Assembly: GCA_946636615.1 (NCBI GenBank)
Contig: CAMPBE010000017.1
Location: 1-34,060 of the forward strand
DNA: 34,060 nucleotides
Direction: 5' to 3'
From: an uncultured bacterium
GTDB lineage: Bacteria > Cyanobacteriota > Vampirovibrionia > Gastranaerophilales > Gastranaerophilaceae
A program made the position numbers and the translations under genes. The notes below the pieces were generated by a model that was given only the letters and a program-made list of their open reading frames with translations, was not told the DNA's origin and made no database searches. Below, piece by piece: positions 1 through 9,525 of this stretch (the stretch's first letter is position 1; every line of letters begins with the position of its first letter).

Positions 1-126
1 ACATTTCTATTATTTAGTTATAATAATTTGTTAAATTTTATTCACAAATAAAAGTTATGAGGCAATACTCATTAAAAAAAATACTTTATATAAGAGTAGT
101 GTAGTAGTTTATATTGTAGTGTGTAA

Positions 127-903
127 ATGGTATTAGAAATCAATAGAACGCTTAATGTAGGCGGAATTACCCCTAATATTTATAATAACCGAAACAGATA
201 TGTAAGTTTCGGTCAACAGAGTGCTGACACTTTTGAAAACACTTCGCTCAATCGCTACACAACTGAAACTGCAATAAGAAGAATGATTGAGAATAACCAT
301 AAAGTTAAAAATATTATTAAAGATTTTAATCCGAATATGGATTTGAATATAGAAGAATTAAACGAGCTTATGCAAAATCATGCTACAGATACCCGTAATA
401 TAACAATAGGAATAGCTGAACATCTTCCGTTTGCACTACAGTCAAAAGTTGATAAAAAAGCGCTAAATGATGCTGCGTACTTGCATGATCTGGGTAAGGT
501 GTTAATTCCTAAAGAAATTTTAAATAAGCCTGCAAAATTAGACGAAGCAGAAACAAAAATAATGCATACTCATTCTGAATTAAGCTATGAAATGCTTAAA
601 AATTCCGGTCTGAATGATAAAACTCTTAAATTAATAAGAAATCATCATCAAAATGCAAAAAGGACAGGTTATCCTTGGGTTAGCAATAATTTTAACGCCG
701 ATTTAGATTTGCAAATTTTGTCAACTGCTGACAAATATTCTGCATTAACGGAGAAACGTCAATATAAAGAACCAATGTCTTCTGAACAGGCTTTGACAAT
801 AATTTATCAGGATGTTAAGGATGGAAAGCTGCATCCGTTTGTCTTTAAAGCATTGGTTAATTATACGAACAGCCCTGAAGCTATACAAAAAGTTGCTTCA
901 TAA
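127..903 (+). CDS. HD-GYP-type phosphohydrolase, probable cyclic di-GMP phosphodiesterase
   Basis: 258 aa. The HD-GYP core spans about residues 85-245. Visible motifs are HDLGK at 120-124, the following 'IPKEILNKP' stretch, HTH at 147-149, NHH at 172-174, GYP at 181-183 and ADKYSAL at 201-207 followed by R211-Q-Y, the usual order for HD-GYP domains that hydrolyse cyclic di-GMP. The common HHE is HHQ here. There is no receiver, PAS or membrane segment, only a roughly 80-residue N-terminal region of unknown role containing a short V-S-F-G motif at 26-29 that recurs in other orphan proteins of this window. No Shine-Dalgarno sequence precedes the ATG; a -10-like TATATT sits at 110-115, so the mRNA may have almost no leader. 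Fold assignment is firm; catalytic activity is inferred from retained metal ligands. Confidence 0.85.
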   Translation: MVLEINRTLNVGGITPNIYNNRNRYVSFGQQSADTFENTSLNRYTTETAIRRMIENNHKVKNIIKDFNPNMDLNIEELNELMQNHATDTRNITIGIAEHLPFALQSKVDKKALNDAAYLHDLGKVLIPKEILNKPAKLDEAETKIMHTHSELSYEMLKNSGLNDKTLKLIRNHHQNAKRTGYPWVSNNFNADLDLQILSTADKYSALTEKRQYKEPMSSEQALTIIYQDVKDGKLHPFVFKALVNYTNSPEAIQKVAS

Positions 904-4174: not shown

Positions 4175-4318
4175 ATGATTTGGTATATAACACCTACAGG
4201 CATAATCTATCATGAAGCTGATAGTGCCTATATTGACATTGAAAAAATGCCAAAAAAATACAATAAAATTTTTCAAACAACACTCATTATTTATAATTTA
4301 GAAATGCATATCAAATGA
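4175..4318 (+). CDS. Possible 47-aa ORF or gene fragment
   Basis: ATG 4175 opens a 47-codon frame beginning MIWYITPTGIIYHEADSAY and ending in TGA at 4316-4318. It overlaps the 3' end of the convergent 98-aa gene by 21 nt. The composition looks protein-like, but there is no Shine-Dalgarno and no recognised domain. Its W-Y-I start echoes that of the remnant at 3177. It could be a 3' fragment of a lost gene or chance. Confidence 0.2.
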   Translation: MIWYITPTGIIYHEADSAYIDIEKMPKKYNKIFQTTLIIYNLEMHIK

Positions 4319-4594
4319 AGATGGCATTCCGTTAATTCTTTCATCTTCCATACGCATTGCAGAACCTATCGTAAAACTTTCAGCATATATTTTGTTAATT
4401 TTGTATGTCAAATCTCCGTTAAATACTTCCTCGTTTTCTTCTAAAAACTGAAACAGCGGCTCTGCCGGTGATTTTACTATATTATTTAAAGTTTCTTTTG
4501 CATGTTTAATTGTATGTTCGCCAATTTCGGGAACTTTAACATTCATTCCGAATGGTTTATAAGGTCTGTTAAATGATGCTCCTGTTTCTGCCAT
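4298..4594 (-). CDS. Orphan 98-aa protein of unknown function
   Basis: A small soluble protein with no signal peptide, membrane segment or recognised domain. The N-terminus MAETGASFNRPYKPFG is Pro/aromatic-rich and includes G-A-S-F-N at 5-9, loosely like the S-F motif in its neighbours. The remainder is predicted mainly helical and acidic. A good AGGA Shine-Dalgarno lies 8 nt before the ATG, supporting it as a real gene. It follows the larger HNH-like gene on the same strand after a 93-nt gap, so cotranscription is possible. Confidence 0.6.
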   Translation of the reverse strand: MAETGASFNRPYKPFGMNVKVPEIGEHTIKHAKETLNNIVKSPAEPLFQFLEENEEVFNGDLTYKINKIYAESFTIGSAMRMEDERINGMPSSFDMHF

Positions 4595-4687: not shown

Positions 4688-6100
4688 CTATTCACTATAA
4701 GAAGGTCTACATTTAAGATGCTTTGATTTAATTTTTATACCGCTTTCGTCCTTAAATATTTTTAGCATATTTACTACGTCTTCAAAATCAAAGTAGCCTT
4801 TATTTGCATCTTCAATAATTTCATTCCAATATTTTTGTGCATTACACTTTTTAAACATTTTATAAAATTCACCCATATCACTGTGTTGCCGAGTATTATT
4901 GCAGCGCTTACAAGCAATTGCCCAATTGATTATTGAGTCTATACCGCCTAAAAAGGATGGCTTTTGATGTTCTATTGTTAGTTCAGATGGAGTAAATAAA
5001 TCATATGCAATTTTTTCTGGTGACAACTGATCATGCTTTGTTATAAATGCGTATACGTTATCACTTGATGTTGGTAAACTGTTTGCTTGCTTGAATAGTT
5101 CAGCTCGCAATGGGTTTGTATCCTCGAGACCTAATAGTGCTTCTTTTAGGTCATATACAAATGACCTGTTAGAGAATTTCCCCATAATTGGTTCTCCGTT
5201 AAGCTGCTTTTCTGCTTCTAAGCACAAATTGTATATATCTTTCTTTTTATGATTTTTCGTTTCTGTTTTAATAGCCTGTATTATCATTGTGTTAAGTCTT
5301 TTTGCGGGATAATTAATTTTTATATTGTTTATTTTATTTGTTTTTGCGTTTGGTGATATAGTTTTCAAAATTCTTAGTACTATTTTATCAGTAATTGGTT
5401 CAGTTTGTTTGTATATAGCAGGTATTGTTAGCAATTCAGTAAGGCTATTAATTCTCTTTGCCAATTTCGGATCGGATATGGCTTTGGTAAAATTTTCAAT
5501 TTTATATCTTATTTCTTTTCCGCTAAATTCTTCTTCATGAGGTATTCTTAACATTCTGTATCTACTTTTTGCTATTAAATTTAATACATTTGTTTTATTT
5601 TCTTCAGGTAGTTTATTTGCAAGGACTGCCATTTTATTAAATATTGGTTCTTGAGATTTTAAAAGCTCTTTATTTGCTTTTGTTGACATTATTTTTATAA
5701 CTGTATCCAGCTTTGCTTGAGGATTCTTTCTTGATATATATTCGACATATTCAAAAATTTCACGTTCAGAAGTATGTAAGCATTCTTTGTATTTTCTAAA
5801 TCTTTTTACAAAAGCTCCTATTGGTAATGAGAACAAATTGTCATTTTTCCAAGTGTTAAATAAAGCTTCATCATATTTCATTAGTACACTACAGTACATG
5901 CAATGATATCCGCCTCTTTGTATTGCTCTCTCCTTAAATGCTTTGACTGTTTTTATAGGTATTATTCGGTGTTTACTGCTAAAAGAAACTTTATCTGAAT
6001 TAGGAATAAAATTTGTAGGATAATTTTGCAAAGTCAAATTATGATTGCTTTGCATGTTTCTGTTTGAATGCAGTTGTGGAAGTATTGATTGAATCCTCAT
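4688..6100 (-). CDS. HNH-type nuclease-like protein with long insertion between zinc-knuckle halves
   Basis: 470 aa. A first Cys pair C67-x-x-C70 sits in GGYHCMYC, typical of the start of an HNH zinc knuckle. The rest of the HNH signature appears about 300 residues later: T-I-E-H at 375-378, P-x-x-x-GG at 381-386, N392, C397-x-x-C400-N-N at 397-402 and R404. A largely helical region fills the gap. The next upstream gene encodes a shorter paralogue with the same plan. The N-terminal 45 residues look disordered and contain K-V-S-F-S at 37-41. There is no clear Shine-Dalgarno; the start codon lies in a weak ATCCT/AGGAT inverted repeat. HNH proteins with these residues usually cut DNA with a divalent metal; activity and target here are unknown. 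Confidence 0.7.
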   Translation of the reverse strand: MRIQSILPQLHSNRNMQSNHNLTLQNYPTNFIPNSDKVSFSSKHRIIPIKTVKAFKERAIQRGGYHCMYCSVLMKYDEALFNTWKNDNLFSLPIGAFVKRFRKYKECLHTSEREIFEYVEYISRKNPQAKLDTVIKIMSTKANKELLKSQEPIFNKMAVLANKLPEENKTNVLNLIAKSRYRMLRIPHEEEFSGKEIRYKIENFTKAISDPKLAKRINSLTELLTIPAIYKQTEPITDKIVLRILKTISPNAKTNKINNIKINYPAKRLNTMIIQAIKTETKNHKKKDIYNLCLEAEKQLNGEPIMGKFSNRSFVYDLKEALLGLEDTNPLRAELFKQANSLPTSSDNVYAFITKHDQLSPEKIAYDLFTPSELTIEHQKPSFLGGIDSIINWAIACKRCNNTRQHSDMGEFYKMFKKCNAQKYWNEIIEDANKGYFDFEDVVNMLKIFKDESGIKIKSKHLKCRPSYSE

Positions 6101-6145
6101 ATAAGGATAAAATTGCTAACAAAATTTTTTTGCTAGTTTGTAAAT

Positions 6146-7099
6146 TTATTTGTATAAATTGTTAATATCAGCTTCAATTATACCTTCTGACAAGTTATAT
6201 AGTGTTTTTGACAAATTTTCCACATATTCCTTTTTGCATAGTTTTTTATTGCATAATGATATTAATTTGTCAAAATGATATTGTGCATTTTCAGGCATAT
6301 ATGGATTTTCTTCTATCTGATATGATATCGGATAATGGTGTCTTGAATTGTTGCAGTGTGTACATTCAAGCGCAAAATTTAAAGAATTATTTTGTCCTTT
6401 TAAACATTTTGGCATAAGATGTTCAAAAGTTCCAACTGAAGGATGTATTAGATTTAGTGCTATTATTTCCGATTTTTTTCTAGCATTTTTTACAACGAAA
6501 GCACAAACTTCATCGCTTGATCTTGGTAATCTTTTTGCTATTGTAATAATTTCTTCTCTTATTTTAGCGTTTTCAATATTTGATACTATTTGTTTTAATT
6601 TATGAATAAAAATTCTTCTTGAAAATGGCTTGTGAGGTTTCGGATCAAATATTATATCATTTGTTTTGATAATTAATTTTCTAAGTGCTCTTGCTGTCTT
6701 TTTGGGAAGAATTCTTCTGTAAAAACTTATTTTATTAAATATGTTGCTTTGGATTTTGACAAGAGCAAGTTCATGTATTTCTTTTTTTAATAGTAATAAT
6801 TGCTGAAAATCCATTTCGGGATATTTTTGGGCCATTCCTTTAAACATGTTAAACACTTGTCTTTCAACCGGATGCATAATTCTTTCATACGGTTCAAGAA
6901 CTTTTACGACATCATAAGCTTTCCCAACCAATAAGTGATCATCAAGAATTTTGGTATATTCATCAGGATGCATCATTTCCAAACCACAACAAAGACAAGG
7001 AATATGAAATTTAAATAATTCTCTAAGTTCCTTGCGAGTAAGGGGAATCTCTTTGCAGCGAAAAGCTGCATTTTCGATTTTTACAACTTTTCTATCCAT
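6146..7099 (-). CDS. HNH-type nuclease-like protein, shorter paralogue
   Basis: 317 aa from ATG 7099, chosen because AAAGG precedes it by 5 nt; an upstream TTG at 7117 would add six residues. Numbered from that TTG, C41-x-x-C44 (PCLCCG) forms the first half knuckle. The second half has F-E-H at 231-233, N247, C252-x-x-C255-N-N at 252-257 and R259. The insert is about 190 residues. It aligns with the 470-aa neighbour across the insert (both contain ER-x-(V/I)-F, then Q-x-x-IFNK and LP) and most clearly just before the E-H (LP-x-SSD-x-V-x-AF, then PS-x-x-T-x-EH). It lies 45 nt upstream of that gene and 53 nt after tsaB, all on one strand. Paralogy is clear from sequence; nuclease function is inferred. 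Confidence 0.7.
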   Translation of the reverse strand: MDRKVVKIENAAFRCKEIPLTRKELRELFKFHIPCLCCGLEMMHPDEYTKILDDHLLVGKAYDVVKVLEPYERIMHPVERQVFNMFKGMAQKYPEMDFQQLLLLKKEIHELALVKIQSNIFNKISFYRRILPKKTARALRKLIIKTNDIIFDPKPHKPFSRRIFIHKLKQIVSNIENAKIREEIITIAKRLPRSSDEVCAFVVKNARKKSEIIALNLIHPSVGTFEHLMPKCLKGQNNSLNFALECTHCNNSRHHYPISYQIEENPYMPENAQYHFDKLISLCNKKLCKKEYVENLSKTLYNLSEGIIEADINNLYK

Positions 7100-7152: not shown

Positions 7153-7764
7153 CTAACCCATAGGTGGAGGCTGAATGTACAAGGGTTTCAAAAGCCGCCA
7201 ATTGCATTCTTGGTCAGGCATTTTTTCTTCTGCTAGTTTTATTAAAATTTCTCCCAAATTAAGTTCTTGATTTTGATATGATTTTCCCCCAAGAATTGGT
7301 TGCAGCTTGTTATCAGTTAATACTGAATATTTTTCAGTGTCAATTAATTTCTTAACATCTTCTAGCTGAACAGCACCTTTTATTTCATTATCTACGTATA
7401 AGTAAGCGCAATTTTTTCTTGCGTCAAGAGCAATAAGAGGATTTTCTCCAGCACAATTGGCTAGAATTTCGAGTGAAGATATTCCGATAGCCATACAATT
7501 TAGCTGTTGTGCCATTACTCTTGCTACAGTAACACAAGCTCTTATACCCGTAAAACTTCCCGGGCCTATATTAACTGCTATTAAATTTATATCTCTAGGT
7601 TCAATATTGTTTTCTTTTAAAATTTCTTTAATAGTTGAAATTAAAAATGCCGAATGGTATTTGTTGTCGTGATTTTCGACAATTTTTGATGATAGAATAT
7701 TATTGTCTTTTCCCAAAGCTACATACATTTTATCTAAACAAGTATCAAACGCTAATGTTATCAT
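7153..7764 (-). CDS. tsaB: tRNA threonylcarbamoyladenosine biosynthesis protein TsaB
   Basis: 203 aa. TsaB (YeaZ) is an ASKHA-fold partner of TsaD and TsaE in forming t6A37 on ANN-decoding tRNAs. It starts MITLAFDTC, the usual phosphate-1-like strand, and has the family hallmark GPGSFTGIR at about 68-76 followed by GISSLEILA. The C-terminal part is shorter and more divergent, as is common in TsaB. Its start overlaps tsaE by 4 nt (ATGA), implying translational coupling. tsaD is not in the window. A weak inverted repeat spans its stop codon. Confidence 0.95.
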   Translation of the reverse strand: MITLAFDTCLDKMYVALGKDNNILSSKIVENHDNKYHSAFLISTIKEILKENNIEPRDINLIAVNIGPGSFTGIRACVTVARVMAQQLNCMAIGISSLEILANCAGENPLIALDARKNCAYLYVDNEIKGAVQLEDVKKLIDTEKYSVLTDNKLQPILGGKSYQNQELNLGEILIKLAEEKMPDQECNWRLLKPLYIQPPPMG

Positions 7765-8222
7765 TTAGAGAGCTCCTCTATAATTTCATCTTCTCCTGCT
7801 GAAATAAATTCATATATGCGAGAATCATCATTGTCATAAGTTACGTTTATTTTTATATGTTTAAAAGGAGCTTCGTTTTGATTAAATTCTGCCCATTCTA
7901 CAAATGTAACTTGTTTGCCTTCCGAATATTCTCTAAGTTCATCGTATATCGTTTTAATTCCTTCATTTTCCAATCTGTACAAATCAAAGTGATAAATTGG
8001 AATTGAGCCTGTATGGTATTCATTCAAGATTACGAAACTAGGACTTGTTACTTTTTCTTTGACATCAAGTGCCTCTGCAACAAGTTTTACAAATGCAGTT
8101 TTTCCGGCTCCAATTTCTCCGTACAAATTTATAAAACACCCATTTTGAATGAGTTTTGCAAATTTTTTAGCAAGAACTTTGGTATCATCTAATGTTTTGC
8201 ATATTTGTTTATATGTTTTCAT
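7761..8222 (-). CDS. tsaE: tRNA threonylcarbamoyladenosine biosynthesis ATPase TsaE
   Basis: 153 aa, normal length. Walker A GEIGAGKTAF lies near residues 36-45, SPSFVILNEY near 60-69, and then HFDLYRLE and a TFVEWAE strand, the standard TsaE series. TsaE hydrolyses ATP to drive turnover of the TsaBD complex. The gene overlaps the end of the GGDEF gene by 14 nt and the start of tsaB by 4 nt, so the run is almost certainly one transcript. Confidence 0.95.
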   Translation of the reverse strand: MKTYKQICKTLDDTKVLAKKFAKLIQNGCFINLYGEIGAGKTAFVKLVAEALDVKEKVTSPSFVILNEYHTGSIPIYHFDLYRLENEGIKTIYDELREYSEGKQVTFVEWAEFNQNEAPFKHIKINVTYDNDDSRIYEFISAGEDEIIEELSK

Positions 8223-9525
8223 GTTTATTCCTGTCGTATGTTACAACTTTATTTCTGCCTGAGGCTTTTGCGTTATATAGGGCTTTATCTGCATTTCTAA
8301 TAAATTCATTTTCATCTTTTTCAGCTTTATATTGCGCAACTCCAAGACTTATTGTAACACCAATATTATGGTTTTCTGAATTATATTTAGAAATGTCAAT
8401 TTTTTTGTTTGCTACAGCTGCACGCAGACGTTCGGCAACCATTTGTGCTTCTTCAATTTTTGTAAATGGTAATAAAATGACAAATTCTTCTCCGCCATAT
8501 CTCCCTGCAATATCGTATTCACGGAGTTGATTTCTGATAACTTTAGATACAGTTTTCAGTACCAAATCACCAACAGCATGACCGTATGTATCATTTACTG
8601 ATTTGAAATAATCAATATCAGTCATAATTGCGCAAAGGTTTCTTTTTTGTCTTTTTGCACTTGATGCTTCTTGTTTTACACGTTCTTCCAATTGTCTTCT
8701 GTTATAAAAACCTGTTAACGCATCTAAAGTTGCGTGTTTTAATATTTCTGCATAAACATTTGCTCTGTTTATAGTTGTTGCAGCCTGAGATGAGAGTTGT
8801 TCAAGATATTCTATTTCTTTTTCGCTAAGAACATTTTCAGTACTTTTTGTTACTATACAGCCAAGTAACTTATTTTCACTAATTAGTGGGAACAGTCCAA
8901 TTTTTTTGTCAGGTGTTAAAATGTATTCTGATTTACTGTTCAACAATTTTATTAATTCAAAAATCTTTTGGTCATTGCAGGCAGAAGGCCATATTAATTC
9001 GTTATTTATAAATATATAGACAAGGTGATCTGAAACAAATTTATCAATCATTTCGCCAATAATAGGAACTATATAGTTAATTTCATATTGTGTTTCAATA
9101 ATTTTGGCAATATTTTTCATTGAATCGTGAAATTCAATATTTTTTTGCATTCTTTCAGACAAAATTACGTTTTGAATTTTTAAAGATATACAAAAACTTG
9201 ACAAATCAAGAAACTCAAAAAGTTTTTCGTGTAAATGTTCCTTAAATTCCAACATACCAATAACTTTTTTGTTATTATAAAGAGCATAGTAAGATTTTGT
9301 TTTTCCGTTAATGTACTTTTTATCTTTTAATTCATTAAACACTTCATTAAGTTCTTTTGACTTTATAAACATCCAACTTTTTGAAAAATCCCTTAAAGAA
9401 TCTGTTGTTGAATCATAAATATATATTGCACTTAGCGGAAATACTTCCTCCAAAGTGGCAGTAATACTTCTAGCGTCATTGCTGTCGTTTAAAAAAGAAA
9501 ATATTTGCTTTAAATTATCTATCAT
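8209..9525 (-). CDS. GAF-GGDEF diguanylate cyclase
   Basis: 438 aa. The C-terminal GGDEF domain (about 265-430) has [11 protein letters not shown]303-x-D-x-[12 protein letters not shown], the active site RYGGEEF (GGEEF at 344-348) and ISLGVA. An inhibitory I-site R335-x-x-D338 lies five residues before GGEEF, so feedback control by cyclic di-GMP is expected. Residues about 130-258 resemble a GAF sensor; the first 125 residues may be a second degenerate one. No membrane segment, so a cytosolic sensor. It is embedded between yebC (4-nt overlap) and tsaE (14-nt overlap), an unusual housekeeping context. It synthesises cyclic di-GMP; the ligand is unknown. Confidence 0.93.

What the first reader, a model, noticed from the sequence alone, without database searches (positions are those of the whole stretch)
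4688..7099. Tandem HNH-like proteins with a 190-310 residue insertion between zinc-knuckle halves
In both proteins the first Cys pair (CxxC) is far from the E-H...N...CxxCNN-x-R half that completes an HNH site, whereas the halves are normally a few tens of residues apart. The inserted helical regions align between the paralogues (ER-x-x-F, Q-x-x-IFNK, LP-x-SSD-x-V-x-AF), so this is a defined architecture and not a misassembly. It may be an undescribed nuclease subfamily whose insert recognises a target or partner.
Basis: partly seen in the sequence, partly recalled or inferred. Interest (0 to 1): 0.6.

Follow-up and report, generated by a model that had tools for sequence, protein, structure and literature searches.

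The report
HNH nucleases with inserted helical domain
Two neighbouring genes of a gut bacterium encode DNA-cutting-type (HNH) proteins whose small zinc-held catalytic unit is split by a large helical domain found, in the genomes searched, only in this bacterial order, and the pattern is kept so strictly across about 170 genomes that it must be a working, previously undescribed nuclease family.

Summary
Window 4688-6100(-) (HNH-L, 470 aa) and 6146-7099(-) (HNH-S, 317 aa from ATG) are homologues in which a CxxC zinc knuckle lies 187 (S) and 306 (L) residues before the E-H...N...CxxCN half of an HNH site. In 161 relatives the catalytic His and last Asn never change. Zinc ligands are kept or lost together across the 196-394-residue gap: 113 of 114 proteins with an intact first pair keep CC/CD/HC in the second, against 0 of 47 with a broken first pair. 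AlphaFold models (pLDDT about 90) align both ends together to one Cas9-type HNH domain. The insert is a lineage-specific helical domain (166/170 genomes of the family, Gastranaerophilales) without Pfam or PDB-sequence match; HNH-L carries a duplicated module. HNH-S is inherited vertically in a GGDEF-tsaE-tsaB-HNH-S-HNH-L-u98 block (dN/dS 0.03-0.09); the second slot varies widely. Related proteins of about 660 aa hold a catalytically dead unit that keeps all four cysteines, then an intact one. Most likely these are DNA nicking or cleaving nucleases whose nested domain sets target or partner; activity, target and biological role are inferred, not shown. New variant of a known kind.

The parts
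6146..7099 (-). HNH-S, 317 aa: short, conserved paralogue
   Evidence: start codon from invariant M7; pLDDT 90.5 model
6986..6997 (-). HNH-S first zinc pair C41-x-x-C44 (zinc knuckle)
   Evidence: sequence; conservation and joint loss
6449..6964 (-). HNH-S insert: helical domain of about 172 residues nested between zinc knuckle and catalytic half
   Evidence: alignment A5; DSSP of model; lineage-specific
6341..6424 (-). HNH-S catalytic half: E232-H233, N247, C252/C255, N256, R259
4688..6100 (-). HNH-L, 470 aa: long, fast-diverging paralogue
   Evidence: Pfam HNH over cut-off at 372-405; pLDDT 89.1 model
5975..6100 (-). HNH-L N-terminal disordered leader (MRI...VSF), residues 1-42
   Evidence: pLDDT under 50; leader class
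5891..5902 (-). HNH-L first zinc pair C67-x-x-C70
4997..5869 (-). HNH-L insert, residues 78-368
5420..5614 (-). HNH-L helical module, copy 1 (residues 163-227)
   Evidence: unanchored profile of the short-family module, 15.6 bits; best of 860 shuffles 9.3
5057..5263 (-). HNH-L helical module, copy 2 (residues 280-348)
   Evidence: same profile, 19.4 bits; hhalign of the two copies E 3e-8
4889..4972 (-). HNH-L catalytic half: E377-H378, N392, C397/C400, N401, R404
4298..4594 (-). u98: conserved 98-aa protein of unknown function directly downstream
   Evidence: 44 of 77 relatives; adjacent to the HNH pair in 43 loci
7153..7764 (-). tsaB (t6A biosynthesis; Pfam TsaD fold), directly upstream
   Evidence: synteny
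7761..8222 (-). tsaE (t6A biosynthesis)
   Evidence: synteny
8209..9525 (-). GGDEF-domain protein, first gene of the conserved block

Best explanation
HNH-S and HNH-L are His-Me-finger (HNH) endonucleases with a nested domain. The zinc knuckle at the N-terminus and the beta-beta-alpha half at the C-terminus come together in one polypeptide to build a single four-ligand zinc site next to an E-H/N/N active site. A helical domain of about 170 residues (one module) in HNH-S, or about 290 residues (the module duplicated) in HNH-L, is looped out of the hinge between knuckle and hairpin. Supported by computation: homology, one composite HNH fold, joint zinc-ligand loss, invariant catalytic residues, purifying selection, lineage restriction, module duplication. 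Inferred: metal-dependent cleavage or nicking of DNA with His as general base, and the nested domain setting substrate or partner. HNH-S, vertically inherited with tsaB, would be the constant enzyme, and the variable second gene an adapting relative, most plausibly in control of foreign or damaged DNA.
For: Catalytic residues: H233 161/161, N256 161/161, E/D232 161/161. Zinc: first pair CC -> second CC 83, CD 22, HC 8, SW 1; first pair broken (47) -> never CC/CD/HC. On the tree the first pair changes 3 times and the second follows in all 3 independent pairs. Fold: both models align to Cas9 HNH domains over both ends (HNH-S 7mpz Z 7.1, rmsd 3.5, 103 res, model 27..312; 8f43 Z 6.7, rmsd 3.3, 100 res; HNH-L 9k32 Z 8.0, rmsd 4.5, 97 res, model 41..454; 8zcz Z 7.0, rmsd 3.9, 102 res). 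Removing the insert in silico lets Pfam HNH profiles match from position 1 in 4 of 5 proteins and raises the score in those, against a control N-part (HNH-L 32.2 vs 28.0 bits). Dead N-units of 10 double proteins keep all four Cys 202-218 apart. Selection: dN/dS 0.03-0.17. Vertical: HNH-S vs tsaB distance r 0.76, same mean divergence 0.22. Module duplication. Insert only in this order: 166/170 genomes of the family, 3 of other families of the order, 0 elsewhere in the phylum sample.
Against: No coordinates were available, so no Cys-Cys distance was measured; the aligners give only first and last aligned residue, and Z of 7-8 is modest. Joint loss rests on only 3 independent events (sign test p 0.25). 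The insert-removal test did not help HNH-S itself. Covariation does not separate an intramolecular from a dimer-swapped zinc site. Some members have lost zinc ligands, so zinc is not essential to every one. No activity, substrate or phenotype is known; the defence or DNA-control role rests only on copy number, turnover of slot 2 and variability, and PADLOC finds nothing.
Confidence: 0.62

Rival explanations
1. The proteins are exported effectors or toxins: an N-terminal disordered leader (M[KR]I...SFxG) routes a nuclease out of the cell or to the envelope, where it attacks competitors.
For: 43% of non-HNH-S members carry the leader against 2% of other proteins; unrelated proteins share it; the second slot diverges fast; HNH toxin domains are common (PMC3482391).
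Against: HNH-S, the conserved member, lacks the leader. No secretion gene lies next to the locus. The only steady neighbour that could be an immunity gene, u98, is conserved in genomes where it is not beside an HNH gene. The pair sits in a housekeeping gene block.
Confidence: 0.15
2. Free-standing homing-type (selfish) HNH genes lodged beside essential genes (tsaB, rpsL), spreading by cutting alleles that lack them.
For: Copies sit beside conserved genes at recurring sites: tsaB-u98, and upstream of rpsL-rpsG. Slot 2 holds different lineages or broken genes. Free-standing HNH homing genes are a known kind.
Against: HNH-S co-diverges with tsaB and is under strong purifying selection; H and N never decay in 161 proteins; no relative in phage, plasmid or viral collections.
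Confidence: 0.1
3. The two Cys pairs do bind zinc together, but between two chains (a swapped HNH-S/HNH-S or HNH-S/HNH-L dimer), so the pair of genes encodes an obligate heteromer.
For: Tandem genes about 45 nt apart; joint ligand loss fits intra- or intermolecular sites equally.
Against: Single-chain models are confident and match monomeric Cas9 HNH domains; many genomes hold a lone copy; the two genes diverge at different rates.
Confidence: 0.07
4. Nucleic-acid-binding proteins without nuclease activity, in which the HNH fold is only structural.
For: The N-units of the double proteins are catalytically dead; zinc ligands are lost in some members.
Against: E/D-H and the last N are invariant in all 161 single-unit members, including those without zinc.
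Confidence: 0.06

Closest known systems
HNH / His-Me finger endonucleases of Pfam PF01844 and PF14279, e.g. Gmet_0936 (PDB 4h9d)
   Same: E/D-H, N, CxxCN core; Cys4 zinc site; beta-beta-alpha arrangement; HNH-L passes the Pfam cut-off
   Different: Cys pairs 31 residues apart in Gmet_0936 (PMC3765158), 207-326 here; nested helical domain absent there
HNH domain of Cas9 (Nba, Nme, Geo, Sa Cas9) and IscB
   Same: Fold match over both ends of both models; some family members have a C-x-Y-S knuckle without zinc, as I recall for Cas9
   Different: No RuvC, no guide RNA locus (no Rfam hit), and no long insert at this point; NCBIfam IscB matches only the HNH half and far below cut-off
[quoted passage not shown] the paper itself not held)
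   Same: An HNH nuclease with a helical insertion that affects metal binding
   Different: From its title the insertion is within the beta-beta-alpha element of a phage protein, not a domain of 170-290 residues between zinc knuckle and hairpin; no sequence comparison made
Treble-clef zinc fingers with nested or interlaced domains (review PMC4999995)
   Same: Zinc knuckle plus hairpin and helix as separate parts that can be interrupted; loss of zinc ligands known in His-Me fingers
   Different: No such nuclease insertion is described in the passages read

Membership tests
HNH / beta-beta-alpha-Me (His-Me finger) endonuclease | [DE]-H, N, N catalytic residues | tested here: met
   E/D232 161/161, H233 161/161, N247 154/161, N256 161/161
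HNH / beta-beta-alpha-Me (His-Me finger) endonuclease | Profile match over curated cut-off | tested here: met
   HNH-L 25.3 bits vs cut-off 21.4; HNH-S only 13.5, member by homology to HNH-L
HNH / beta-beta-alpha-Me (His-Me finger) endonuclease | Beta hairpin plus helix fold with adjoining zinc knuckle | tested here: met
   DSSP of models and alignment of both ends to Cas9 HNH domains; distances not measured
HNH / beta-beta-alpha-Me (His-Me finger) endonuclease | Compact spacing of the two Cys pairs (common, not strictly defining) | tested here: not met
   196-394 residues between second and third ligand in 161 members
HNH / beta-beta-alpha-Me (His-Me finger) endonuclease | Nucleic acid cleavage activity | not testable with these tools
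   needs an assay
Cas9 / IscB RNA-guided nucleases | RuvC domain and guide RNA | tested here: not met
   only the HNH half matches any library; no Rfam family in the window
Free-standing homing endonuclease | Mobility / horizontal spread | tested here: not met
   HNH-S co-diverges with tsaB (r 0.76); for slot 2 the test is inconclusive (r 0.38)
Polymorphic toxin with immunity gene | Dedicated adjacent immunity gene and export module | tested here: inconclusive
   u98 adjacent in 43 loci but also present away from HNH genes; no export gene seen
Known anti-phage defence system | Match to a PADLOC model | tested here: not met
   no match for the two window proteins

The most novel reading that the evidence does not exclude
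A lineage-wide nuclease system of Gastranaerophilales in which a constant, vertically inherited split-zinc HNH enzyme works with fast-turning-over relatives (second slot, double dead-plus-live proteins, versions with C-terminal extensions), the nested modular domain acting as a changeable recognition unit, as part of a defence or self/non-self DNA control system not yet described.
Probability: 0.2. Interest if true: 0.75.

Novelty: new variant of a known kind. Interest (0 to 1): 0.5.

Why it matters
A large domain placed in the middle of a tiny zinc-held nuclease core, with zinc ligands hundreds of residues apart still evolving as one site, shows how an HNH enzyme can take on a new recognition module without losing its fold. 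The family occurs in nearly every genome of a common but mostly uncultured gut lineage, often in several copies, is missed beyond its last 40 or so residues by the profile libraries searched, and can be tested by ordinary expression and nuclease assays. Paired dead and live units and lineages that lost zinc give natural variants for asking what the zinc site and the insert do.

Tried and rejected
Single-protein scan of GTDB contigs found nothing; alignment A1 was too divergent for pattern search, as was the insert alignment A5. Viral contigs, phage and plasmid collections gave no relative with the insert; phage hits were plain HNH cores with normal spacing. Matches to profile A1 in photosynthetic Cyanobacteria (E 1e-9 to 1e-11) were rejected as ordinary HNH cores because the insert-only profile finds none there. 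Foldseek against PDB and BFVD gave no significant whole-fold match. VIA-align hits of the insert to helical bundles (TTYH2 Z 8.4, McpS 8.2, DGR protein 8ub8_C 7.8) are within what any helical bundle gives and were not used. RNA-guided (IscB/Cas9-like) reading dropped: no RuvC, no Rfam RNA. Idea that u98 is an obligate partner dropped: it is present without an adjacent HNH gene. The literature searches found no description of this family, but the held library is incomplete.

Full report
What is there. The window is one whole contig of a Gastranaerophilales genome (class Melainabacteria/Vampirovibrionia; relatives' record titles). On the minus strand the order is GGDEF protein, tsaE, tsaB, HNH-S, HNH-L, u98. 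HNH-L is 470 aa. HNH-S is 317 aa from the ATG at 7099; the tool's TTG start adds six residues, and the methionine at residue 7 is invariant in 13 orthologues. Residue numbers for HNH-S use the TTG ORF.

Observation. The first CxxC and the E-H...N...CxxCN half are 187 (HNH-S) and 306 (HNH-L) residues apart, measured from second Cys to Glu. Pfam, NCBIfam and PHROGs see only the C-terminal half as HNH, and PADLOC sees nothing in the two window proteins. Ordinary relatives have the halves close together: 18 residues in a phage protein, and Cys38/41...Cys73/76 in Gmet_0936 (PMC3765158).

Same site or not. (a) In 161 aligned members, 114 keep the first pair CC; of these 113 have CC, CD or HC in the second pair. 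Of the 47 with a broken first pair none do. On a tree built without these columns the first pair changes three times, and in all three the second goes the same way, so the covariation is consistent but rests on few events. (b) AlphaFold models of high confidence (pLDDT 90.5 and 89.1) align to Cas9 HNH domains over ranges that begin in or before the helix ahead of the first CxxC and end after the last helix, with about 100 residues aligned out of nearly 290-400 spanned; the insert is what is skipped. (c) When the insert is taken out in silico, Pfam HNH profiles match from position 1 in four of five proteins, with higher scores than a control that puts an unrelated stretch in front (HNH-L 32.2 vs 28.0 bits); HNH-S itself did not improve. 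(d) Double proteins of about 660 aa carry two such units. In 10 of 10 the first unit has lost E-H but keeps both Cys pairs 202-218 residues apart; the second unit keeps D-H and N, and both Cys pairs in nine of ten. Zinc without catalysis there, and catalytic residues without zinc ligands in other members, both fit a structural zinc site built from the two ends.

The insert. It is all-helical in the models, net basic (+14 in HNH-S, +17 in HNH-L), and clusters at 205-210 or 290-346 residues between second and third ligand. The long form contains a second copy of a module of about 65 residues: a profile made from short members only hits HNH-L at 163-227 (15.6 bits) and 280-348 (19.4 bits), while the best of 860 shuffles is 9.3; the two copies align with hhalign E 3e-8. 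An insert-only profile finds 166 of 170 genomes of the family, three genomes from other families of the order, and none of the other genomes sampled in the phylum. It has no Pfam family of its own and no PDB sequence relative.

Evolution. Both genes are under purifying selection (dN/dS 0.03-0.17). HNH-S diverges in step with tsaB (r 0.76, same mean distance 0.22), whereas the gene in the second slot has mean distance 0.67 and little correlation (r 0.38). That slot holds long CCCC, CCCD and CCHC forms, short forms, broken genes (L048, L049) or nothing (L066). Other copies sit at other recurring places, for example upstream of rpsL-rpsG. No relative with the insert was found in viral, phage or plasmid collections.

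How it most likely works. Shown by computation: one family, a composite HNH fold, invariant catalytic residues, jointly kept or lost zinc ligands, a lineage-specific nested domain, vertical inheritance of HNH-S. From established HNH chemistry: His as general base with a metal held by the active-site acidic and Asn/His residues, giving nicks or breaks in DNA. Inferred: the nested domain, being next to the active site, basic and modular, positions the substrate or a partner; the constant HNH-S and the variable second gene suggest a house enzyme and adapting relatives, perhaps against foreign DNA. The tsaB linkage may be only a shared transcript.

Verdict. The sequence observation holds fully, and the architectural reading is well supported. 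The functional reading is open. It belongs to the HNH superfamily as a new variant with a nested domain, not a new category.

Noticed in passing
L262:2171-4045(-), L263, L264, L265, L266:2278-4227(-), L272:803-2650(+): MutL proteins (GHKL ATPase plus DNA_mis_repair domain) in other families of the class end in an HNH domain (CVYC...DHxxP...CxxCN, ordinary spacing); in the three scanned (L262, L266, L272) no other C-terminal domain matched at E 0.01. Compare the octocoral mtMutS paper that a search for MutL and HNH brought up (PMC3166940, not read).
   Followed up: partly
L210:16278-18296(+), L276-L286: Double split-zinc HNH proteins of about 660 aa: a catalytically dead unit with four Cys, then a live unit. 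Near-whole-length matches in 11 of 116 relatives searched.
   Followed up: yes
window 5975-6100 and N-termini of many unrelated proteins (L150:10811, L144:12768, L069:6491, L043:1847): A disordered N-terminal leader M[KR]I...(D)xVSFxG is on 43% of non-HNH-S family members and about 2% of other proteins, including unrelated ones; perhaps a lineage-specific sorting signal.
   Followed up: partly
L078, L183, L185, L186, L192: A family copy lies next to genes that look like rpsL and rpsG (directly upstream in four of the five), a second housekeeping neighbourhood besides tsaE-tsaB.
   Followed up: no
window 4298-4594(-): u98, a 98-aa protein of unknown function, is 80-92% identical across the genus and is present even where no HNH gene is adjacent.
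   Followed up: partly
L048:6465-7837(-), L049:6052-7448(+): The second-slot gene is interrupted by stops or frameshifts in two genomes while HNH-S stays intact.
   Followed up: no
L069:4270-6501(-), L196:5894-8089(-), L197:6037-10414(+): Family members of 700-770 aa with a C-terminal extension of about 400 residues; only a weak SMC/LmuB-like coiled-coil match for L069.
   Followed up: no
L103 (FR900446.1): Record named Fusobacterium sp. CAG:439 carries this Gastranaerophilales-specific locus; the name looks wrong.
   Followed up: no
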